This document shows, in pieces, positions 9,365 to 33,904 of a stretch of 36,729 nucleotides of DNA. Position numbers and translations under genes: made by a program. Within the stretch, counting starts at the first letter, position 1. Every line of letters begins with the position of its first letter. The notes beneath the pieces are model-generated. The model had not been told where the DNA came from. It saw only the letters and a list, made by a program, of their open reading frames with translations, and did no database searches. Origin of the DNA: Bacteroidota bacterium (lineage in GTDB: Bacteria > Bacteroidota > Ignavibacteria > UBA10030 > BY39); contig JASEGV010000028.1 in NCBI GenBank assembly GCA_030017895.1, positions 1-36,729 on the forward strand, written 5' to 3'.

Positions 9365-10825
9365 TTAATTTACTTTATATTGTTCTTTGGGTTTATCATA
9401 TTTTTTTTGAGAAGCATCTATTGCGGTATCGATTTTATCAACTATTGCAGCCGACATTTCAGCCTCGGCAACCAAAGTTCCGTCAACATAAGCTTCACCT
9501 GACATAAAAGCCATCTTGCTGCGTTTGCTAATTAATTTCATTTCTAACACTAATTGATCGCCGGGCAATACAGGTTTCCGGAACTTAACATTATTAATCG
9601 ACATAAAATAGACGAGTTTATCGCCCGGATTTTCGACACCATTCAGCAGCAGGATACCACCAGTTTGAGCCATCGCTTCAACAATTAACACACCGGGCAT
9701 CACAGGTTGACCTGGAAAGTGTCCTTCGAAAAACGGCTCATTCACTGTAACGTTCTTAATTCCAACTATTTTTTCGTCCAACTTAAAATCTACAATTTTA
9801 TCAATCAACAAGAACGGATATCGGTGTGGGAGAATTTTTTTGATCGCGTTAATATCGAAGACAACACCTTCTTTTTTCTCGTGTTGAAATTTTTTTACAA
9901 GTTTCTTTTGCAGATACATTTTGCGCACAAGTTTTGCAAATTCAACGTTGCTGGCATGTCCGGGACGTGCAGCAAGAATTTGTGCTTTGAAAGGTGCTCC
10001 TATTAAAGCCAAATCGCCCATAACGTCTAAAAGTTTGTGCCGTGCCGGCTCGTTCTTGTAACGCAACATTTTATTATTCAACGCACCGGTTTTTCCTAAA
10101 AATATTGACCTTTCGATTCCAAGTTTTTGTGCAACCCGTTTTACTTCATCATTCGGCATTTCGTTATCTACAATTACTATAGCGTTATCGAGATTTCCCC
10201 CTTTTATCAGCCCGTGCGAATGAAGTGCCTCTACTTCGTGCAAAAAACAAAATGTTCGTGCCGACGAAAATTCTTCGATGAATTCTTTTTCGAGATTAAA
10301 CAAACCTGTGTGCTGACTTCCTAATGCTGGATTTTGATAATCAATCATTACTGTAACGCGATAATCATCGGTTGGCAGTGCAACAATATCGACCCCATTT
10401 TTTTCATCACGGTAATGTATCGTTTGATCGATTATAAGATAATCTTTCATTGCGTTTTGTGTATGGAGTCCGGCTTCCAATAGCGCATCTACAAAAGGTC
10501 GTGAACTTCCATCGCAGATCGGTGGTTCGATGTTATTTATTTCTATGATGATGTTATCTATTTGAAGTCCAACTATTGCCGCAAGTATATGTTCAATTGT
10601 GTGAACTTTAGCATCGCCAAGCGAGAGTGTTGTTCCGCGTGAAACATCAACTACTAAATCGACTAACGCTGGAATTTCGGGATTGCCTCCTAAATCTACA
10701 CGCTTGAATTTGATGCCGTAGTTTTCGGGGGCGGGTCTGAAAGTAAGTGTGGTTTCAACTCCGGTGTGTAAACCGGAACCTGTGAGTGATATACTTTTAT
10801 TTATCGTCCGTTGATGAGCTATCAT
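9365..10825 (-). CDS. lpxC/fabZ: Bifunctional LpxC deacetylase / FabZ dehydratase fusion
   Basis: 486 residues in two domains. Residues 1 to about 310 are LpxC, the zinc deacetylase of the committed lipid A step: HTIEHILAA gives E78 and H79, ARHKLLDVMGD holds the other zinc ligands (His and Asp four apart), and GHASN gives the catalytic His. Residues about 325-470 are FabZ, the 3-hydroxyacyl-ACP dehydratase: ILPHRYPFLLIDKI with the catalytic His and GQPVMPGVLIVEAMAQTGG with the catalytic Glu. The fusion is characteristic of the Bacteroidota/Chlorobi group. It puts the enzyme that drains 3-hydroxyacyl-ACP into fatty acids on the same chain as the enzyme committing it to lipid A. The start overlaps the lpxD stop by four bases. 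Confidence 0.97.
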   Translation of the reverse strand: MIAHQRTINKSISLTGSGLHTGVETTLTFRPAPENYGIKFKRVDLGGNPEIPALVDLVVDVSRGTTLSLGDAKVHTIEHILAAIVGLQIDNIIIEINNIEPPICDGSSRPFVDALLEAGLHTQNAMKDYLIIDQTIHYRDEKNGVDIVALPTDDYRVTVMIDYQNPALGSQHTGLFNLEKEFIEEFSSARTFCFLHEVEALHSHGLIKGGNLDNAIVIVDNEMPNDEVKRVAQKLGIERSIFLGKTGALNNKMLRYKNEPARHKLLDVMGDLALIGAPFKAQILAARPGHASNVEFAKLVRKMYLQKKLVKKFQHEKKEGVVFDINAIKKILPHRYPFLLIDKIVDFKLDEKIVGIKNVTVNEPFFEGHFPGQPVMPGVLIVEAMAQTGGILLLNGVENPGDKLVYFMSINNVKFRKPVLPGDQLVLEMKLISKRSKMAFMSGEAYVDGTLVAEAEMSAAIVDKIDTAIDASQKKYDKPKEQYKVN

Positions 10826-27154: not shown

Positions 27155-27994
27155 TTATCTTAAACTTTCTTCAAGGGCAGTAGAAGCATCCGTTTTTTCG
27201 TCGCGATATTTTACAATCACCGGAGTATAAACCGAAATGCCATTAATTTTTCCCCACTTGCTTGAAATAGGCCGCGAGCCGGGAACTACAACTGCATTTT
27301 CGGGAATTATCAAAGGTGTTTCGGGGATCTTTCTATAGAATTGATTTTTCACAGCATCGTAAACCGGTGTTGAACCTGTAATGAAAACACCCGTAGCAAT
27401 TACGCAACGTTTTTGCACGATTGTGCCTTCGTAAATACCGCAGTTACCACCGATGAGGACATCGTCCTCGATGATTACGGGCATCGCGCCTACCGGCTCA
27501 AGAACGCCGCCAATTTGTGCGGCTGCGCTAACGTGAACACGTTTCCCGATTTGAGCACACGAACCAACCAACGCATGCGAATCAATCATCGTTCCTTCGT
27601 CAACATAAGCGCCGATGTTAATGTAAGCAGGCGGCATCATTACTACACCTTTTGCCACATAAGCTCCATCGCGGACAGCGCTTCCGCCGGGAACGATACG
27701 CACGTTATCTTGTATCTCAAAGTTTTTTAACTTCATTGTATGTTTGTCGAAATACTGGAACAACTCGTCGGTTGAATATTCAGTTAACAAACCAATACGG
27801 AAACCGAGCAGAATTCCTTTTTTCACCCATGTATTCACTCTCCATCCGCTGCCATCCTGTTCAGCCGATCTGACTTCGCCGCGGTTTAATAACTCTTTAA
27901 GTTCCTTGAAAATTTTGTGAGCTTCTGCGCGATTGAGCTGATCAATCGGCTCGGAAAATAACTGTTCTATTTTTTTTTGTAAAGAAGTATTCAT
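27155..27994 (-). CDS. dapD: Tetrahydrodipicolinate N-succinyltransferase
   Basis: 279 residues from ATG 27994 (a GTG at 28015 would add seven). DapD succinylates tetrahydrodipicolinate in the succinylase branch of lysine/diaminopimelate synthesis. The N-terminal helical domain (about 1-95) is followed by a left-handed hexapeptide helix: [61 protein letters not shown] and [16 protein letters not shown] are classic DapD. It is transcribed after dapA, with a 50-70-base gap holding a hairpin. dapC and dapE are absent from the window. Confidence 0.96.
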
Positions 27995-28014
27995 AATTCG
28001 GATTTCAGATTTCA

Positions 28015-28051
28015 CCCGCCCGACTGAATGACTTCTGTCGTTCGGGCAGGG
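28015..28051. repeat. GC-rich REP-like palindrome between dapA and dapD
   Basis: Arms CCCGCCCGA (28015-28023) and TCGGGCAGGG (28042-28051) pair over nine bases with one bulged A; inner bases extend the stem. It is markedly GC-rich against an AT-rich background and lies between dapA and dapD. This resembles a repetitive extragenic palindrome or small MITE. Only one copy is in the window, so repetition in the genome is not shown. It overlaps the GTG start that would extend DapD, which argues for the ATG start at 27994. Confidence 0.55.
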
Positions 28052-28065
28052 ATTTTCGATTTTTT

Positions 28066-28959
28066 TTATATAAGTTTTAATTCTTTCAGTATTGCTTCTA
28101 ACTTCGTGCGATGTTTATCGCTCAACGGAACAAGCGGCAGACGGTATGCTTCTTCAATTTTCCCCATCATCGCGAGTGCTGATTTTACAGGAATCGGATT
28201 CGATTCGATGAAGTTAAAATTCATTAGCGGTAAAAGTTTGTTGTGTAACTTTGCCGCTTCGTTAAATTTACCATTCAAAGCGAGTCGGGTCATCTGAGAA
28301 AACATTTTTGGAACTTCATTCGCGACCACGGAGATAACTCCATCGGCACCCAGCGAAACAAGCGGAAGTGTGATAGCATCATCGCCCGACCAGACCGCAA
28401 AGCCTTTCGGACGGTTACGAAGGATTTCCATAATTTGTGTAAAATTGCCGGAAGCTTCTTTAACTCCGATAATGTTCGGAATTTTCTCAGCCATCCGTAA
28501 AGTTGTTTCAGCTTCGATGTTGCTTCCCGTTCGACCGGGGACGTTATAAACTACAATAGGGACACCTGTTTCTTCTGCGATTACTTTGTAGTGTCGCAAA
28601 AATCCTTCCTGCGTCGGTTTGTTGTAATATGGACCGACGGATAAGATAGCATCGGCTCCGGCTTGAAAAGCCAACTTGGAAAGTTTAATGGCTTTGCTTG
28701 TATCGTTAGAGCCGGCGCCCGCAATTATTTTTACCCGTTTTCGAGCAGTTTCAGCAACAATTCGAATTACATCTATTTGCTCTGCTTCGTTGAGTGTTGC
28801 ACTTTCGCCGGTTGTTCCGGTAGGAATTATTGCTTCAACTCCGTTCTTAATTTGGTACTCTACTAAATTGCGAAGCGCCTTTACGTCAATCGTTCCGTTT
28901 GTTTTGAAAGGTGTAACTAACGCCGTTCCTGTTCCTTTAAATAATATTTCTCGTTTCAT
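28066..28959 (-). CDS. dapA: 4-hydroxy-tetrahydrodipicolinate synthase
   Basis: 297 residues, a TIM-barrel aldolase. GTTGES (48-53) binds pyruvate, [10 protein letters not shown] carries the catalytic Tyr, and GVKEASGN carries the Schiff-base Lys (about 165). It condenses pyruvate with aspartate semialdehyde, the branch point to lysine and peptidoglycan. Eighteen bases downstream of dapB. Normal length. Confidence 0.97.
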
Positions 28960-28977
28960 AAATTTAATCCATTATTT

Positions 28978-29715
28978 TTATATTGAGGTCATAACATCTT
29001 TCATAGTAAACACGCCCTTTTTACCGTTAAGCCATTCGGCTGCTAGCAATGCACCGAGAGCGAATCCTCTGCGGTTTTTTGCTGTATGAGTCAACTCAAT
29101 ACAATCAAAATCGGAATCGAATAAAACAGTATGCTTACCGATGCAAGAACCAACACGAGTTGAAGTTATATGCAATTGGTCAGATTTCATTTTCGAGCGT
29201 GCAGTTTCTTGCAACATTTCTTTCTTCCTCTTCACGTTTTGCGTTATTATCTGTCCTAACACTAACGCAGTTCCGCTTGGGCTATCAGCTTTTTGTTTAT
29301 GATGTATTTCCGAAACCATCATATCATACTCATCAAAATTATTAAAAATACTTGATGCAGTATTTATTATGCGGTAAAAGATGTTTATTCCCAAAGAAAA
29401 ATTCGGTGAATAAAGTAAGCCGATATTGTTCTTCTTCACAATCTTCTTTACATCTTCTATTTTATCGAACCACCCGGTTGTTCCGACCACAATATTTTTT
29501 CCAGCATTTGCAACAGCTTCAATATTATCGAACACCACTGAGGGCGTCGTGAAATCGATACATACATCAATATTTTTCAGATTTTGTTTAGTCAGTGCAA
29601 GTGAATTGTAATTTTCTTCTTCGGTAATTATTTTTTTAACAGTTGAACCTTTTTCTATCGCAACTTCCTCGATAGCTTTGCCCATCTTACCATAACCGAT
29701 AATAGCTATATTCAT
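28978..29715 (-). CDS. dapB: 4-hydroxy-tetrahydrodipicolinate reductase
   Basis: 245 residues. Rossmann start MNIAIIGYGKMGKAI, DFTTPSVV, VVGTTGW, SPNFSLGIN and the active-site loop EIHHKQKADSPSGTA. It reduces the DapA product with NAD(P)H. The closing TAKNRRGFALGALLAAEW is typical. It lies 11 bases after the PfkB-family gene. Confidence 0.97.
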   Translation of the reverse strand: MNIAIIGYGKMGKAIEEVAIEKGSTVKKIITEEENYNSLALTKQNLKNIDVCIDFTTPSVVFDNIEAVANAGKNIVVGTTGWFDKIEDVKKIVKKNNIGLLYSPNFSLGINIFYRIINTASSIFNNFDEYDMMVSEIHHKQKADSPSGTALVLGQIITQNVKRKKEMLQETARSKMKSDQLHITSTRVGSCIGKHTVLFDSDFDCIELTHTAKNRRGFALGALLAAEWLNGKKGVFTMKDVMTSI

Positions 29716-29726
29716 ATTATCTCCAT

Positions 29727-30650
29727 CTATTTTTTATTTTCATTAATTTTATATTTCGATAGTTGATCAATTTCGTTGGACGATTTCAAAGTTGCATTCA
29801 TCGCAGCAACCTCATTGGCATATTCTGTCGATATCTTTTCGTCTTTAGCACGGATATATTTTGCGCAGTAGGCGGCTGCAAAAACATCGCCGCAACCGGT
29901 AGAATCCAATGTCCGTTCGGTTTCGATGCCCGCAATATCAAACCGCTCAATGTGTTTATTTTCATCTTTGAAAAGTGTACATCCTTTTGAACTCCGTGTT
30001 ATAATTACGTTGTTCGTGTTTAATGCTGTTATTTGTTTAATTAAATACTCTTCGTCTGGCTTTTCATTTGCAAGTCCGGTTGTTTCTTCTTCGTTCATCT
30101 GAACTGTATGCAGCATAAACAACCATCGCCGCCAATCGGGTATTAACCGGCGATACCTTTTTCCGTCTTCATTTATACCAAGCGATAAGCTGTGGACATC
30201 CAAAAAAATCGGTATCTTTTCTTCTCGTACAGTGATTCTAATTTCATCTAAAGTTTCGAGTGTAATATCAAAGCCCGAAATCATATTTATCAAAATCATA
30301 TTTGTATCAAGATACGGTTTTATTTTTTTAAAAGGAATTGGTTTAGCAATGTTTTTTGAACATTCGATGCGGTGATTATGATTCTGGTAGTAGAGATGAA
30401 CCTGATTAGTTTGACTGTCGGTTTTAAAAATCCCGGATGTATCTACATTTTTATATGCGCTAAGTCGTTCGATCAACTGCGAATAATCTTTGCTTCCGAT
30501 ACCGAACACGGGAAAAATTTTCGTGTTTGAATCGGCAATGTTTGCGAGAGCGGCGAGCGAATAAAAAATTCCGCCGTAACCTTGCGATTGGCTACCGTCG
30601 GCGTGATGAATTACATCGAGGCAAATATGTCCGACTACAGTAATTAACAT
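29727..30650 (-). CDS. PfkB/ribokinase-family sugar or nucleoside kinase
   Basis: 307 residues from the ATG at 30650, which lies two bases past the stop of the HisA-like gene; a longer start would overlap that gene. The start MLITVVGHICLDVI and the C-terminal signature LDSTGCGDVFAAAYC, with the catalytic Asp in GCGD, mark the PfkB fold. The N-terminal GG motif reads QGYGGIFYS. Its substrate cannot be read off: the region between is divergent from ribokinase and fructokinase. Being locked to a HisA-like isomerase-fold gene suggests the two act on one phosphosugar route. This is the least understood pair of the operon. Confidence 0.8.
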   Translation of the reverse strand: MLITVVGHICLDVIHHADGSQSQGYGGIFYSLAALANIADSNTKIFPVFGIGSKDYSQLIERLSAYKNVDTSGIFKTDSQTNQVHLYYQNHNHRIECSKNIAKPIPFKKIKPYLDTNMILINMISGFDITLETLDEIRITVREEKIPIFLDVHSLSLGINEDGKRYRRLIPDWRRWLFMLHTVQMNEEETTGLANEKPDEEYLIKQITALNTNNVIITRSSKGCTLFKDENKHIERFDIAGIETERTLDSTGCGDVFAAAYCAKYIRAKDEKISTEYANEVAAMNATLKSSNEIDQLSKYKINENKK

Positions 30651-30652
30651 TT

Positions 30653-31414
30653 TTATACCTTTGCAGTGAATGGATATTTCATTGATTCGCAAACCCGCCA
30701 GATGCTTTGGCAGGAAAATTTATTTTCGTAAAGAGCTTCCCCAATTACAACCGAATCGACACCGTGTTTGACTAACTCTTGCATTTTCAGAAGGTCGTTC
30801 AGACCTCGGATACCACCTGAGGCAGTTACACGCATACCGGTTTCGATTGCGAATTCTTTAATAGCATCGAAATTCGGAGACGATGTTGTTCCGTCAGTGA
30901 AAATATTTCGGTACACAATACGTGTGAAACCGAGGAATTTAGCATGCTGTGCAGCATCAACAAGAGTGAAATCGGAATTTTTAACCCAGCCTTTAGTAAC
31001 AACTTTGTTATTTTCCACCGACAGACCTATAACAACTTTGCTACCGCCGTACTTTTGCAAAATCTTTACAGCTTCTGTTGGTTTTTCGAGGAACAAAGTA
31101 CCGATTAAAATTCTGTAAACACCGATATCGAAAGCGCGTTGAGCATCGACAAGACTCTGAATACCGCCACCCAACTCGATTGGGATATCAACGGTCTCGA
31201 TAATTTTTTGAACCACACCAAGGTTTACAAAATGCCCGACATTTGCAGCATCGAAATCGGTAATGTGCAGCGACTTAGCATTTTCGCGGCGCCAAAGTTT
31301 AGCCATTTCGACTGGATCGTCCGAGCAAACTGAACCATCCTCGTATTTCACTTTGAAGAGGCATTTACCCGCTATAATTCGTATTGCTGGTATGATTAAT
31401 AGCATAATTTGCAT
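30653..31414 (-). CDS. HisA/HisF-family TIM-barrel protein lacking both catalytic aspartates
   Basis: 253 residues that align along the whole HisA fold: IIPAIRIIAGKCLFK, DPVEMAKLWRRENAKSLHI, IPIELGGGIQS, VVTKGW, FTDGTTSSPNFD, TASGGIRGLNDL and VVIGEALYENKF. The phosphate-binding glycine loops are kept. The two catalytic Asp of HisA are gone: the IPAID Asp is R12, and the SLD/ALD Asp is S132 (IGLSVENN). So it is probably not ProFAR isomerase, and no other his gene is near. It probably binds a ribose-phosphate-like ligand. It sits between aspA (27-base gap) and the PfkB kinase (2-base gap). Confidence 0.75.
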   Translation of the reverse strand: MQIMLLIIPAIRIIAGKCLFKVKYEDGSVCSDDPVEMAKLWRRENAKSLHITDFDAANVGHFVNLGVVQKIIETVDIPIELGGGIQSLVDAQRAFDIGVYRILIGTLFLEKPTEAVKILQKYGGSKVVIGLSVENNKVVTKGWVKNSDFTLVDAAQHAKFLGFTRIVYRNIFTDGTTSSPNFDAIKEFAIETGMRVTASGGIRGLNDLLKMQELVKHGVDSVVIGEALYENKFSCQSIWRVCESMKYPFTAKV

Positions 31415-31441: not shown

Positions 31442-32806
31442 TCAAACTGATAAAGCATCAAAATCCGTTTCCGTCATAATTCCTTTTTCGATAACCAATT
31501 TTTTAACTGTTATATTTTTTTCCAAAGCTTCTTTGGCCAACTCGGCTGTCTTTAGATAACCAATATTAGGGCTGAGAAGAGTGGCTATACTTATACTTTG
31601 TTCAGCATAATTTTTACAACGCTCTTTATTTGCTTCGATACCTTTTACACACTTCTCCGAAAATACAGTAATTGCATTAGTAAGGATTTCTATAGATTGT
31701 AAAAGATTATAGTTGATCACGGGCATCATTACATTTAATTCGAGTTGCCCGGCTTGAGCCGCCAGCGAAATGGTTGTGTTGTTTCCAATTACTTGGAAGC
31801 AAACCATATTTAACATCTCGGCAATTGACGGATTAATTTTACCCGGCATTATTGATGAACCAGGTTGAACAGTAGGCAATTTTATTTCAGCTAATCCGGT
31901 CATTGGTCCGGAGCTTAAAAGTCTTAAATCATTAGCTATTCGTATTAAATCCAAAGATAAATTGGCATAGGCATTCGATAAATGAACAAAAGGGAACATA
32001 CTCTGCATTGCCTCAAAACAATTATCTGCTTTTTTGAATTCCATACCAGTCAGCTTTTGCAGTTCTACTATAACTACATCTCGATAATCCTTCGGTGTGT
32101 TGATTCCGGTACCGACCGCAGTCCCACCTAGTCCTAACTCAAGAAAATATTTTTTCGAGTCGGTTATATTTTCTATGTGTTTCTTCAAAACGGAAGCATA
32201 GCCCGAAAATTCCTGACCCAAACTTATAGGGGTTGCATCCTGCAGATGAGTTCGACCTGACTTAATTACGCTTGCAAACTCAACCGATTTTTCATTAAAC
32301 ACAATCTGAAATTTTATTAATGCGGCAATAAACGTCTTAAGTTTTTCCAATGCGGCAACCCGCATTGCAGTCGGGTAAGTATCGTTTGTAGATTGACTCA
32401 TATTCACGTGATCGTTTGGATTTATTAACGAGTAATTCCCTTTTTCTGCTCCAGTTAATTCGAGAGCGCGATTCGCAATCACTTCGTTCACATTCATGTT
32501 AAATGATGTACCCGCACCGGCTTGGTACACATCCACTACAAACTGATCGATAAATTTTCCCGACAAAATTTCATCACAAGCCAAGATAATCGCATCAGCA
32601 ATCTTTTTATCGAGTACATTACATTTTTTGTTTGCAATAGCCGCTGCTTTTTTTATGAGCAGATACGACTCAATAAATACTTTATGCGCTTTGAGGTTAC
32701 TAATAGGAAAATTTTCCAGCGCCCGCTGCGTTTGTATCCCATAGTAAGAATCTTTAGAAATATGTTTCTCTCCCAACGAATCCTTTTCTAACCGAAACGA
32801 TTGCAT
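31442..32806 (-). CDS. aspA: Aspartate ammonia-lyase
   Basis: 454 residues from ATG 32806. Aspartase/fumarase superfamily: GAGTSFNMNVNEVIANRA, SQSTNDTYPTAM, SGRTHLQDATP, GGTAVGTGINTPKDY and the signature loop GSSIMPGKINPS with the catalytic Ser. YYGIQTQRALENFPIS, together with NMVCFQVIGNN after the signature, favours aspartase over fumarase C. It converts aspartate to fumarate and ammonia, reversibly. An ideal Shine-Dalgarno AGGAGG (32814-32819) stands seven bases before the ATG and lies inside the end of the upstream zinc-ribbon gene, whose stop it nearly touches. Confidence 0.9.
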   Translation of the reverse strand: MQSFRLEKDSLGEKHISKDSYYGIQTQRALENFPISNLKAHKVFIESYLLIKKAAAIANKKCNVLDKKIADAIILACDEILSGKFIDQFVVDVYQAGAGTSFNMNVNEVIANRALELTGAEKGNYSLINPNDHVNMSQSTNDTYPTAMRVAALEKLKTFIAALIKFQIVFNEKSVEFASVIKSGRTHLQDATPISLGQEFSGYASVLKKHIENITDSKKYFLELGLGGTAVGTGINTPKDYRDVVIVELQKLTGMEFKKADNCFEAMQSMFPFVHLSNAYANLSLDLIRIANDLRLLSSGPMTGLAEIKLPTVQPGSSIMPGKINPSIAEMLNMVCFQVIGNNTTISLAAQAGQLELNVMMPVINYNLLQSIEILTNAITVFSEKCVKGIEANKERCKNYAEQSISIATLLSPNIGYLKTAELAKEALEKNITVKKLVIEKGIMTETDFDALSV

Positions 32807-32808
32807 CT

Positions 32809-32988
32809 TCAATCCTCCTTATGCAATGTAAATTCTGTTTGAGAAGCATTGCATGACGGACAAGTTTCCGGTAATCCTTTTTTGCGGGGAATACTATAAC
32901 CGCAATTTGTGCATTCCCACAGAAGTTCCATATCGAATGATTGAAAATCTTCAACTTGTCCATTGTCTCTTTCTATCTGTTCATTCAT
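32809..32988 (-). CDS. 59-residue zinc-ribbon protein (rubredoxin/rubrerythrin-tail-like)
   Basis: A small gene not visible in a list of long frames: ATG 32988 to TGA 32809-32811, 59 residues. A short acidic head is followed by LLWECTNCGYSIPRKKGLPE and TCPSCNASQTEF, with two CxxC knuckles that could bind one iron or zinc, as in rubredoxin or the C-terminal domain of rubrerythrin. The Pro-Glu before the second knuckle (LPETCPSC) is typical of these. Its last codons contain the aspA ribosome site, so the two are translationally coupled. Function unknown; electron transfer or oxygen-stress response by analogy only. Confidence 0.75.
   Translation of the reverse strand: MNEQIERDNGQVEDFQSFDMELLWECTNCGYSIPRKKGLPETCPSCNASQTEFTLHKED
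32814..32819 (-). promoter_or_regulatory. Shine-Dalgarno of aspA inside the zinc-ribbon gene
   Basis: AGGAGG read on the minus strand, seven bases before ATG 32806. It decides the aspA start against a TTG two codons further upstream, and shows that both genes are translated together. It is the strongest ribosome site I noticed in this otherwise weakly marked window. Confidence 0.8.
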
Positions 32989-33446: not shown

Positions 33447-33650
33447 ATGAGTTTAAAAATTAAAGAAACACAAGTTTTATACGATGCAAAAGGGAAAAAA
33501 ACACATGTTCTACTTTCGTACAAAAAATATCAAGAGTTTATTGAAATGTTCGAAGACATGGAAGACTTAGCTCTGATGAAAGAAGTGGAAAAGGAAAAAT
33601 CAATTCCGTGGGAAGTAGTTAAGAAAAACTTAGATAAGAAGAAAAAATGA
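33447..33650 (+). CDS. Antitoxin of a RelE-type module (RelB/Phd-like)
   Basis: 67 residues: QVLYDAKGKKTHVLLSYKKY, followed by QEFIEMFEDMEDLALMKEVE, then a basic tail. The beta-strand head followed by an acidic helix is the shape of antitoxins that precede RelE-fold toxins. AAAGGATAAATTT precedes the ATG. It overlaps the toxin start by four bases (ATGA). Confidence 0.78.
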   Translation: MSLKIKETQVLYDAKGKKTHVLLSYKKYQEFIEMFEDMEDLALMKEVEKEKSIPWEVVKKNLDKKKK

Positions 33651-33904
33651 AATATTCGGTAATCGTTAAACCGAATGTGTCTAAAGATTTAGACCTACTG
33701 CCGAAGTATCTCTATTCGAACATCAAAAATGTTATAAATTCATTAGAAGAAGAATCCAGGCCTGCTGGCTGTAAAAAATTGATCGGTTCGAAAAACCGTT
33801 GGCGAATTCGAATAGGTAACTATCGAATACTGTATGAAATAAATGATGATTTAAAAATAGTTGAAATATTTAGGATTGCGCATAGAAAGGATGCATATAG
33901 ATAG
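33647..33904 (+). CDS. RelE/ParE-superfamily toxin
   Basis: 85 residues: a two-helix head (VSKDLDLLPKYLYSNIKNVI), then the strand core KLIGSKNRWRIRIGNYRILYEI and the end VEIFRIAHRKDAYR, a typical RelE arrangement with several Arg and the closing HRKD-YR. Intact. Its last codons overlap the possible starts of alaS, which is translated in another frame. Confidence 0.85.
   Translation: MKYSVIVKPNVSKDLDLLPKYLYSNIKNVINSLEEESRPAGCKKLIGSKNRWRIRIGNYRILYEINDDLKIVEIFRIAHRKDAYR

What the first reader, a model, noticed from the sequence alone, without database searches (positions are those of the whole stretch)
30653..31414. HisA-like barrel that has lost both catalytic aspartates, paired with a PfkB kinase
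The protein keeps the HisA fold and its phosphate-binding glycine loops, but the IPAID Asp is Arg (R12) and the second catalytic Asp is Ser (S132). A PfkB-family kinase follows after two bases, and no other histidine gene is near. That points to a repurposed HisA paralogue working with a sugar or nucleoside kinase on an unknown phosphorylated metabolite, next to aspartate and diaminopimelate genes.
Basis: partly seen in the sequence, partly recalled or inferred. Interest (0 to 1): 0.72.

Follow-up and report, generated by a model that had tools for sequence, protein, structure and literature searches.

The report
HisA pseudoenzyme kept without histidine pathway
In a large group of bacteria related to Ignavibacterium, a histidine-making enzyme has lost its active site and often its whole pathway, yet nearly every genome keeps the gene, with a different face of the protein now frozen in evolution, so it probably does an unknown second job.

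Summary
Window 30653-31414 (minus strand) encodes a 253-aa HisA-fold protein with Arg12 and Ser132 in place of HisA's two catalytic Asps; a PfkB kinase follows two bases later. The host, an Ignavibacteriales-type Bacteroidota (genome ~100% complete), has no other hisA or hisF and no hisB, hisD or hisH, so it cannot make histidine this way. It does have trpF.

The gene is not a duplicated paralogue. By tree, C-terminus and synteny it is the vertically inherited hisA, left after the his pathway was lost or replaced by a Bacteroidia-type operon. It is kept in 59 of 60 relatives, and in all 28 genomes (own included) without hisB and hisD. A HisA-family gene matches in 172 of 178 good genomes of the class; only 65 have hisB.

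In 66 drifted members, active-site residues invariant in true HisA are lost, while a patch on the barrel's bottom face and helix 8 (R42, E44, N45, P78, R101, R165, D220, C235, Q236, W239, R240, E243) is nearly invariant. dN/dS is 0.15.

The PfkB pairing, conserved in this order, looks like a relic of an ancestral hisBHAFI-purE-pfkB block. Most likely: a HisA pseudoenzyme kept for docking or sensing; partner unknown.

The parts
30653..31414 (-). HisA-like pseudoenzyme (253 aa by ORF; likely start at Met4). R12 and S132 replace the HisA catalytic Asps; conserved patch R42, E44, N45, K47, P78, R101, R165, D220, S221, N231, F233, C235, Q236, W239, R240, E243
29727..30650 (-). PfkB-family kinase, ATG at 30650, two bases after the HisA-like stop; keeps the GCGD anion-hole/catalytic-base motif; substrate unknown
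   Evidence: PF00294 5e-15; orthologues in the order; linkage
28978..29715 (-). dapB, syntenic block downstream (context only)
   Evidence: TIGR00036 178 bits; conserved order
28066..28959 (-). dapA, syntenic block (context only)
   Evidence: reading of the translation
27155..28015 (-). dapD, syntenic block (context only)
   Evidence: reading of the translation
31442..32812 (-). aspartase/fumarase-family lyase upstream; adjacent only in this genus among the loci read
   Evidence: NF008909 657 bits

Best explanation
The protein is the group's own, vertically inherited HisA, turned into a pseudoenzyme. Shown: an ancestral Chlorobiota/Ignavibacteria-type hisA lost its histidine context, because the his pathway was lost or was replaced by a Bacteroidia-type operon with its own hisA. 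Its active site then drifted (D12 to E, then R in this family; D132 to S; R20, T169 and D170 lost). The gene itself stayed under purifying selection in almost every genome of the class, whether or not his or trp genes are present. Inferred: what selection preserves is a patch on the N-terminal (bottom) face of the barrel and on helix 8, which was already present in the enzymatically intact HisA of the lineage. The protein therefore most likely carries out a second, non-isomerase role that HisA already had in the ancestor, by docking to a partner protein (or to itself) through that face. It may be gated by a small phosphorylated ligand held by the partly retained H50/D53 and C-terminal phosphate loops (G200-G201, G225). 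The partner is not identified; PfkB is not it in general.
For: No his pathway but HisA-like kept: own genome and 27 of 60 relatives lack both hisB and hisD, and all of these keep it. Class: 172 of 178 good genomes match, 65 of 178 have hisB. Vertical origin: split from Bacteroidia-type HisA with SH-aLRT 95 and 89/99; two families (f4, f12) still have the same gene intact inside hisB-hisH-hisA-hisF-hisI, next to the same downstream genes. PMC8305728 separately argues that the his operon of I. album and M. roseus was acquired horizontally and that Chlorobi-type HisA has an extra C-terminus. Selection: dN/dS 0.145 against the sister genome, like PfkB 0.116 and AspA 0.124. Swap of constraint: in drifted members at mean identity 0.37 the invariant positions are 15 bottom and 6 top; in Bacteroidia-type HisA at 0.41 they are 5 bottom and 26 top (Fisher p 1e-4, nominal). 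All 22 positions invariant in both true sets and lost in the drifted set are top or mid barrel. E44, R240, E243 and K47 go from 48, 48, 65 and 74% in lineage HisA to 92-100%. Fold kept: AlphaFold pTM 0.83, Z 30.8 to PriA.
Against: No partner, ligand or phenotype is shown. Part of the patch (R101, R165, D220, W239) is equally conserved in the lineage's active HisA and could be structural. Bottom and top were assigned from secondary-structure order, not from measured distances. Counting positions ignores phylogenetic dependence. Some class members (f10, f14, f16, f17, f24) keep both Asps and could still be isomerases of another substrate. Loss of D12 happened more than once and to different residues, which fits neglect of the site but does not exclude a new chemistry.
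Confidence: 0.5

Rival explanations
1. A neofunctionalised enzyme: the barrel catalyses a different reaction on a phosphorylated metabolite with a rebuilt top-face active site (R12, E in relatives, H50, D53, T197, phosphate loops), possibly alongside the PfkB kinase in this order.
For: H50, D53, D55, T197 and the beta-7 GG loop stay at 91-98% in drifted members. R12 is fixed in the window's family and E12 in most of the order. PfkB follows on the same strand in most loci of the order.
Against: Residues at 12, 20, 132, 143, 169, 170 and 174 vary widely between families, and the beta-3 phosphate loop is lost in several families. A fixed new chemistry should freeze the new site across the class. 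PfkB is dispensable, and the sampled families outside the order (apart from the canonical his-operon family f12) have other neighbours.
Confidence: 0.25
2. HisA-like and PfkB form a dedicated two-step pathway on a sugar or nucleoside.
For: Same-strand linkage with gaps of 0 to about 600 bases (purE in between at the larger gaps) in nearly all non-his-operon loci of the order.
Against: The same PfkB follows canonical his operons in f4 and f12. It is unlinked in G002 and G004, absent from G025 and G045, and fragmented in G030 and G049 while HisA-like is intact. Linkage belongs to a larger syntenic block with dapB, dapA, dapD, rmlD and serS.
Confidence: 0.1
3. It replaces TrpF (PRA isomerase), as PriA or SubTrpF does in Actinobacteria.
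For: Precedent for retained HisA-family enzymes changing between HisA and TrpF roles after gene loss (PMC5404923, PMC13055916).
Against: The own genome has trpF next to trpC. Thirteen relatives lack his genes and trpC yet keep HisA-like. Both catalytic residues are gone here.
Confidence: 0.02
4. It is a decaying relic of hisA with no function.
For: Active site lost, pathway lost, neighbours differ between sublineages.
Against: Intact ORF in nearly all genomes over the whole class, dN/dS 0.145, and a set of surface residues invariant over 66 sequences at 43% mean identity.
Confidence: 0.04

Closest known systems
HisA (ProFAR isomerase), Chlorobiota/Rhodothermota type
   Same: Same fold, orthologous by tree, shares the C-terminal extension and much of the bottom/helix-8 patch (extension described in PMC8305728)
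   Different: Catalytic Asps and other active-site residues lost; no his pathway in the genome
PriA / SubHisA / SubTrpF / AdeK of Actinomycetota (PMC5404923, PMC13055916)
   Same: A HisA-family enzyme kept and altered after loss of his or trp genes
   Different: Those keep catalytic Asps and an isomerase role or a biosynthetic cluster; here the active site is abandoned, the change spans most of a class, and another surface is constrained
HisF (cyclase subunit, docks HisH on its bottom face)
   Same: Works-like comparison only: bottom face of a (beta/alpha)8 barrel as docking surface (general knowledge)
   Different: No HisH in this genome; sequence closer to HisA than to HisF
AglZ/HisF2 and WbuZ amidation proteins; TIGR00734 hisAF_rel
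   Same: HisA/HisF superfamily members outside histidine synthesis
   Different: Scores far below their cut-offs: 92 of 310, 83 of 300, 46 of 180 bits

Membership tests
HisA (ProFAR isomerase, TIGR00007) | score above the curated equivalog cut-off | tested here: not met
   196.8 bits against 228.95
HisA (ProFAR isomerase, TIGR00007) | catalytic Asp at the end of beta-1 and at beta-5 | tested here: not met
   R12 and S132; both Asp 100% in true sets
HisA (ProFAR isomerase, TIGR00007) | histidine pathway in the genome | tested here: not met
   no hisF, hisB, hisD, hisH
HisA (ProFAR isomerase, TIGR00007) | HisA fold and ancestry | tested here: met
   Z 30.8 to PriA; tree
HisA (ProFAR isomerase, TIGR00007) | ProFAR isomerase activity | not testable with these tools
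   needs assay or complementation
PriA / TrpF substitute | trpF missing while trp genes are present | tested here: not met
   trpF and trpC adjacent in G000 C29
AglZ/HisF2, WbuZ | score above curated cut-off | tested here: not met
HisF-type partner-docking barrel | HisH glutaminase partner | tested here: not met
   no HisH above cut-off in G000
HisA-like/PfkB two-gene system | the two genes occur together | tested here: not met
   HisA-like without a PfkB orthologue in G025 and G045; unlinked in G002 and G004

The most novel reading that the evidence does not exclude
HisA in the ancestor of the Chlorobiota/Ignavibacteria group carried an essential second, structural job through its bottom face and helix 8. 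That job, not histidine synthesis, explains why the gene is almost never lost in the class, even after the pathway and the active site are gone. If so, the histidine enzyme HisA of green sulfur bacteria and their kin also moonlights.
Probability: 0.35. Interest if true: 0.8.

Novelty: new variant of a known kind. Interest (0 to 1): 0.6.

Why it matters
HisA is a textbook model for enzyme evolution after gene loss, studied through PriA, SubHisA and SubTrpF. Here is a case on the scale of a bacterial class in which the enzyme outlives both its pathway and its active site, while a different surface becomes the constrained part. It points to an unrecognised second role of HisA in the Chlorobiota/Ignavibacteria lineage. 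It names about a dozen residues to mutate and a natural comparison (f4 and f12 HisA against drifted homologues). It also warns that 'hisA' annotations in these genomes are no evidence of histidine synthesis.

Tried and rejected
TrpF replacement: rejected by trpF and trpC in the own genome and by 13 relatives without his genes and trpC that keep the gene. HisH as bottom-face partner: rejected, none in the genome. PfkB as general partner: rejected. Pseudogene: rejected by dN/dS and intact frames. Second canonical hisA in this genome: none; the two weak PF00977 hits are Dus and dihydroorotate dehydrogenase. A universal neighbour across the class was sought and not found: contexts change by sublineage. 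Other known HisA/HisF subfamilies: scores far below cut-offs. Three literature queries found no paper on this protein as a pseudoenzyme, but the library is open-access only.

Full report
What is there. The ORF at 30653-31414 lies on the minus strand and encodes 253 residues. It matches PF00977 at 3.4e-58. Against the curated models it scores best with HisA but below the equivalog cut-off, 196.8 against 228.95 bits. The IPAID motif reads IPAIRI (R12) and the beta-5 motif reads VIGLSVENN (S132). R20, R86, T169 and D170 of true HisA are also changed, while W143 is kept. The PfkB ORF starts at ATG 30650, two bases after the stop.

The host cannot make histidine this way. G000 (3.2 Mb, completeness 100) has no second hisA or hisF; two weak PF00977 hits are a Dus and a dihydroorotate dehydrogenase. 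hisB, hisD and hisH are missing. trpF is present next to trpC. Relatives with public titles are Ignavibacteria, Ignavibacteriales, Melioribacteraceae and Chlorobi/Bacteroidota MAGs.

Distribution. 59 of 60 relatives have the gene. 28 genomes, own included, lack both hisB and hisD, and all keep it; 13 of them also lack trpC. In the class, 172 of 178 good genomes match (a few of these matches may be only a Bacteroidia-type HisA or HisF), while 65 of 178 have hisB.

Origin. In two families (f4, f12) the orthologue is a canonical HisA with both Asps, inside hisB-hisH-hisA-hisF-hisI and followed by purE and/or pfkB, rmlD and serS in most loci. In the other families of the order the same slot, upstream of pfkB, holds the drifted protein. 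His-making members of those families have a second hisA-hisF about 30% identical to the window protein. Trees split vertical-type from Bacteroidia-type HisA (SH-aLRT 95; bootstrap 89 / SH-aLRT 99; short of the strict threshold in the second). A published survey argued that the his operons of I. album and M. roseus are horizontal acquisitions and that Chlorobi-Rhodothermota HisA carries an extra C-terminus (PMC8305728); the passages read do not mention a retained vertical copy. Melioribacteraceae-type drifted proteins (f6) group with f4/f12 HisA at 97/94 and not with the window's group, so the loss of D12 probably happened more than once (inference).

Selection. Window against sister genome: dN 0.032, dS 0.217, ratio 0.145; PfkB 0.116, DapA 0.080, AspA 0.124.

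What is conserved. Over 66 drifted proteins (mean identity 0.43), the positions at 95% or more include R42, E44, N45, I77, P78, R101, R165, D220, S221, N231, F233, C235, Q236, W239, R240 and E243. Using the predicted secondary structure (pTM 0.83), these fall mainly in alpha-to-beta loops, N-terminal strand ends and helix 8, i.e. the bottom face and one flank. Positions invariant in both sets of true HisA but lost in drifted ones number 22, all on the top face or mid barrel. At matched divergence, invariant positions are 15 bottom and 6 top in drifted proteins against 5 and 26 in Bacteroidia-type HisA (nominal Fisher p 1e-4; moving H50 to the top side changes nothing). E44, K47, R240 and E243 are only partly conserved in the lineage's true HisA (48, 74, 48, 65%) and reach 92-100% in drifted ones; the Bacteroidia-type enzymes lack them.

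Neighbours. PfkB follows on the same strand in nearly all non-his-operon loci of the order, with purE in between in many. It is unlinked in G002 and G004, has no orthologue in G025 and G045, and is split in G030 and G049. Elsewhere in the class the neighbours are PorZ (f10, f17), a Crp-like protein and UspA (f14, f16, f24, f27) or RuvA (f18, f19, f26). PfkB linkage is therefore best read as inherited block synteny.

Mechanism. Best reading (inference, about 0.5): a pseudoenzyme retained for a second role of HisA through docking at the bottom face and helix 8, possibly ligand-gated through the retained H50/D53 and C-terminal phosphate loops. Main rival (0.25): a new enzymatic function on the top face. 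TrpF replacement, HisH docking and decay are contradicted by the data.

Comparison with known cases. The closest are PriA/SubHisA/SubTrpF (PMC5404923) and PriA expansions in special metabolism (PMC13055916): retained HisA-family enzymes that shift function after gene loss. Here the active site itself is abandoned and another surface is constrained over much of a class. I file it as a new variant of a known kind, not as a HisA.

Noticed in passing
L125-L159 (families f14, f16, f24), HisA-like position 143: Class members that keep both catalytic Asps often carry Arg where HisA has the loop-5 Trp ('KGR' for 'KGW'), beside or without a separate his operon; they may be active isomerases with another substrate.
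   Followed up: partly
L128, L130, L132, L133, L134, L160, L161: PorZ-type beta-propeller (type IX secretion) gene lies one or two genes upstream of the HisA-like gene, same strand, in families f10 and f17; in f17 urocanate hydratase follows (by reading).
   Followed up: partly
G025, G045 (L081, L082): Two 1.7 Mb genomes of the his-operon family f4 have lost the his genes and the PfkB orthologue but keep a HisA-like gene with E12 next to purE.
   Followed up: partly
G030:C67:28984-29606, G049:C129:10046-10688: PfkB orthologue split over several frames while the neighbouring HisA-like gene is intact.
   Followed up: no
window 33447-33904 (+): ParE-like toxin gene (PF05016) with a 67-aa ORF before it, between clpS and alaS; looks like a type II toxin-antitoxin pair.
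   Followed up: no
window 9365-10825 (-): LpxC fused to a FabZ/FabA-type domain, in a lipid A gene block with LpxD and an Omp85/BamA-type protein.
   Followed up: no
G018:C3:172140-173431: A hisH-like gene with a HisF-like gene right behind it in a genome without hisB and hisD; possibly a HisF2/HisH2 amidation pair, not histidine synthesis.
   Followed up: no
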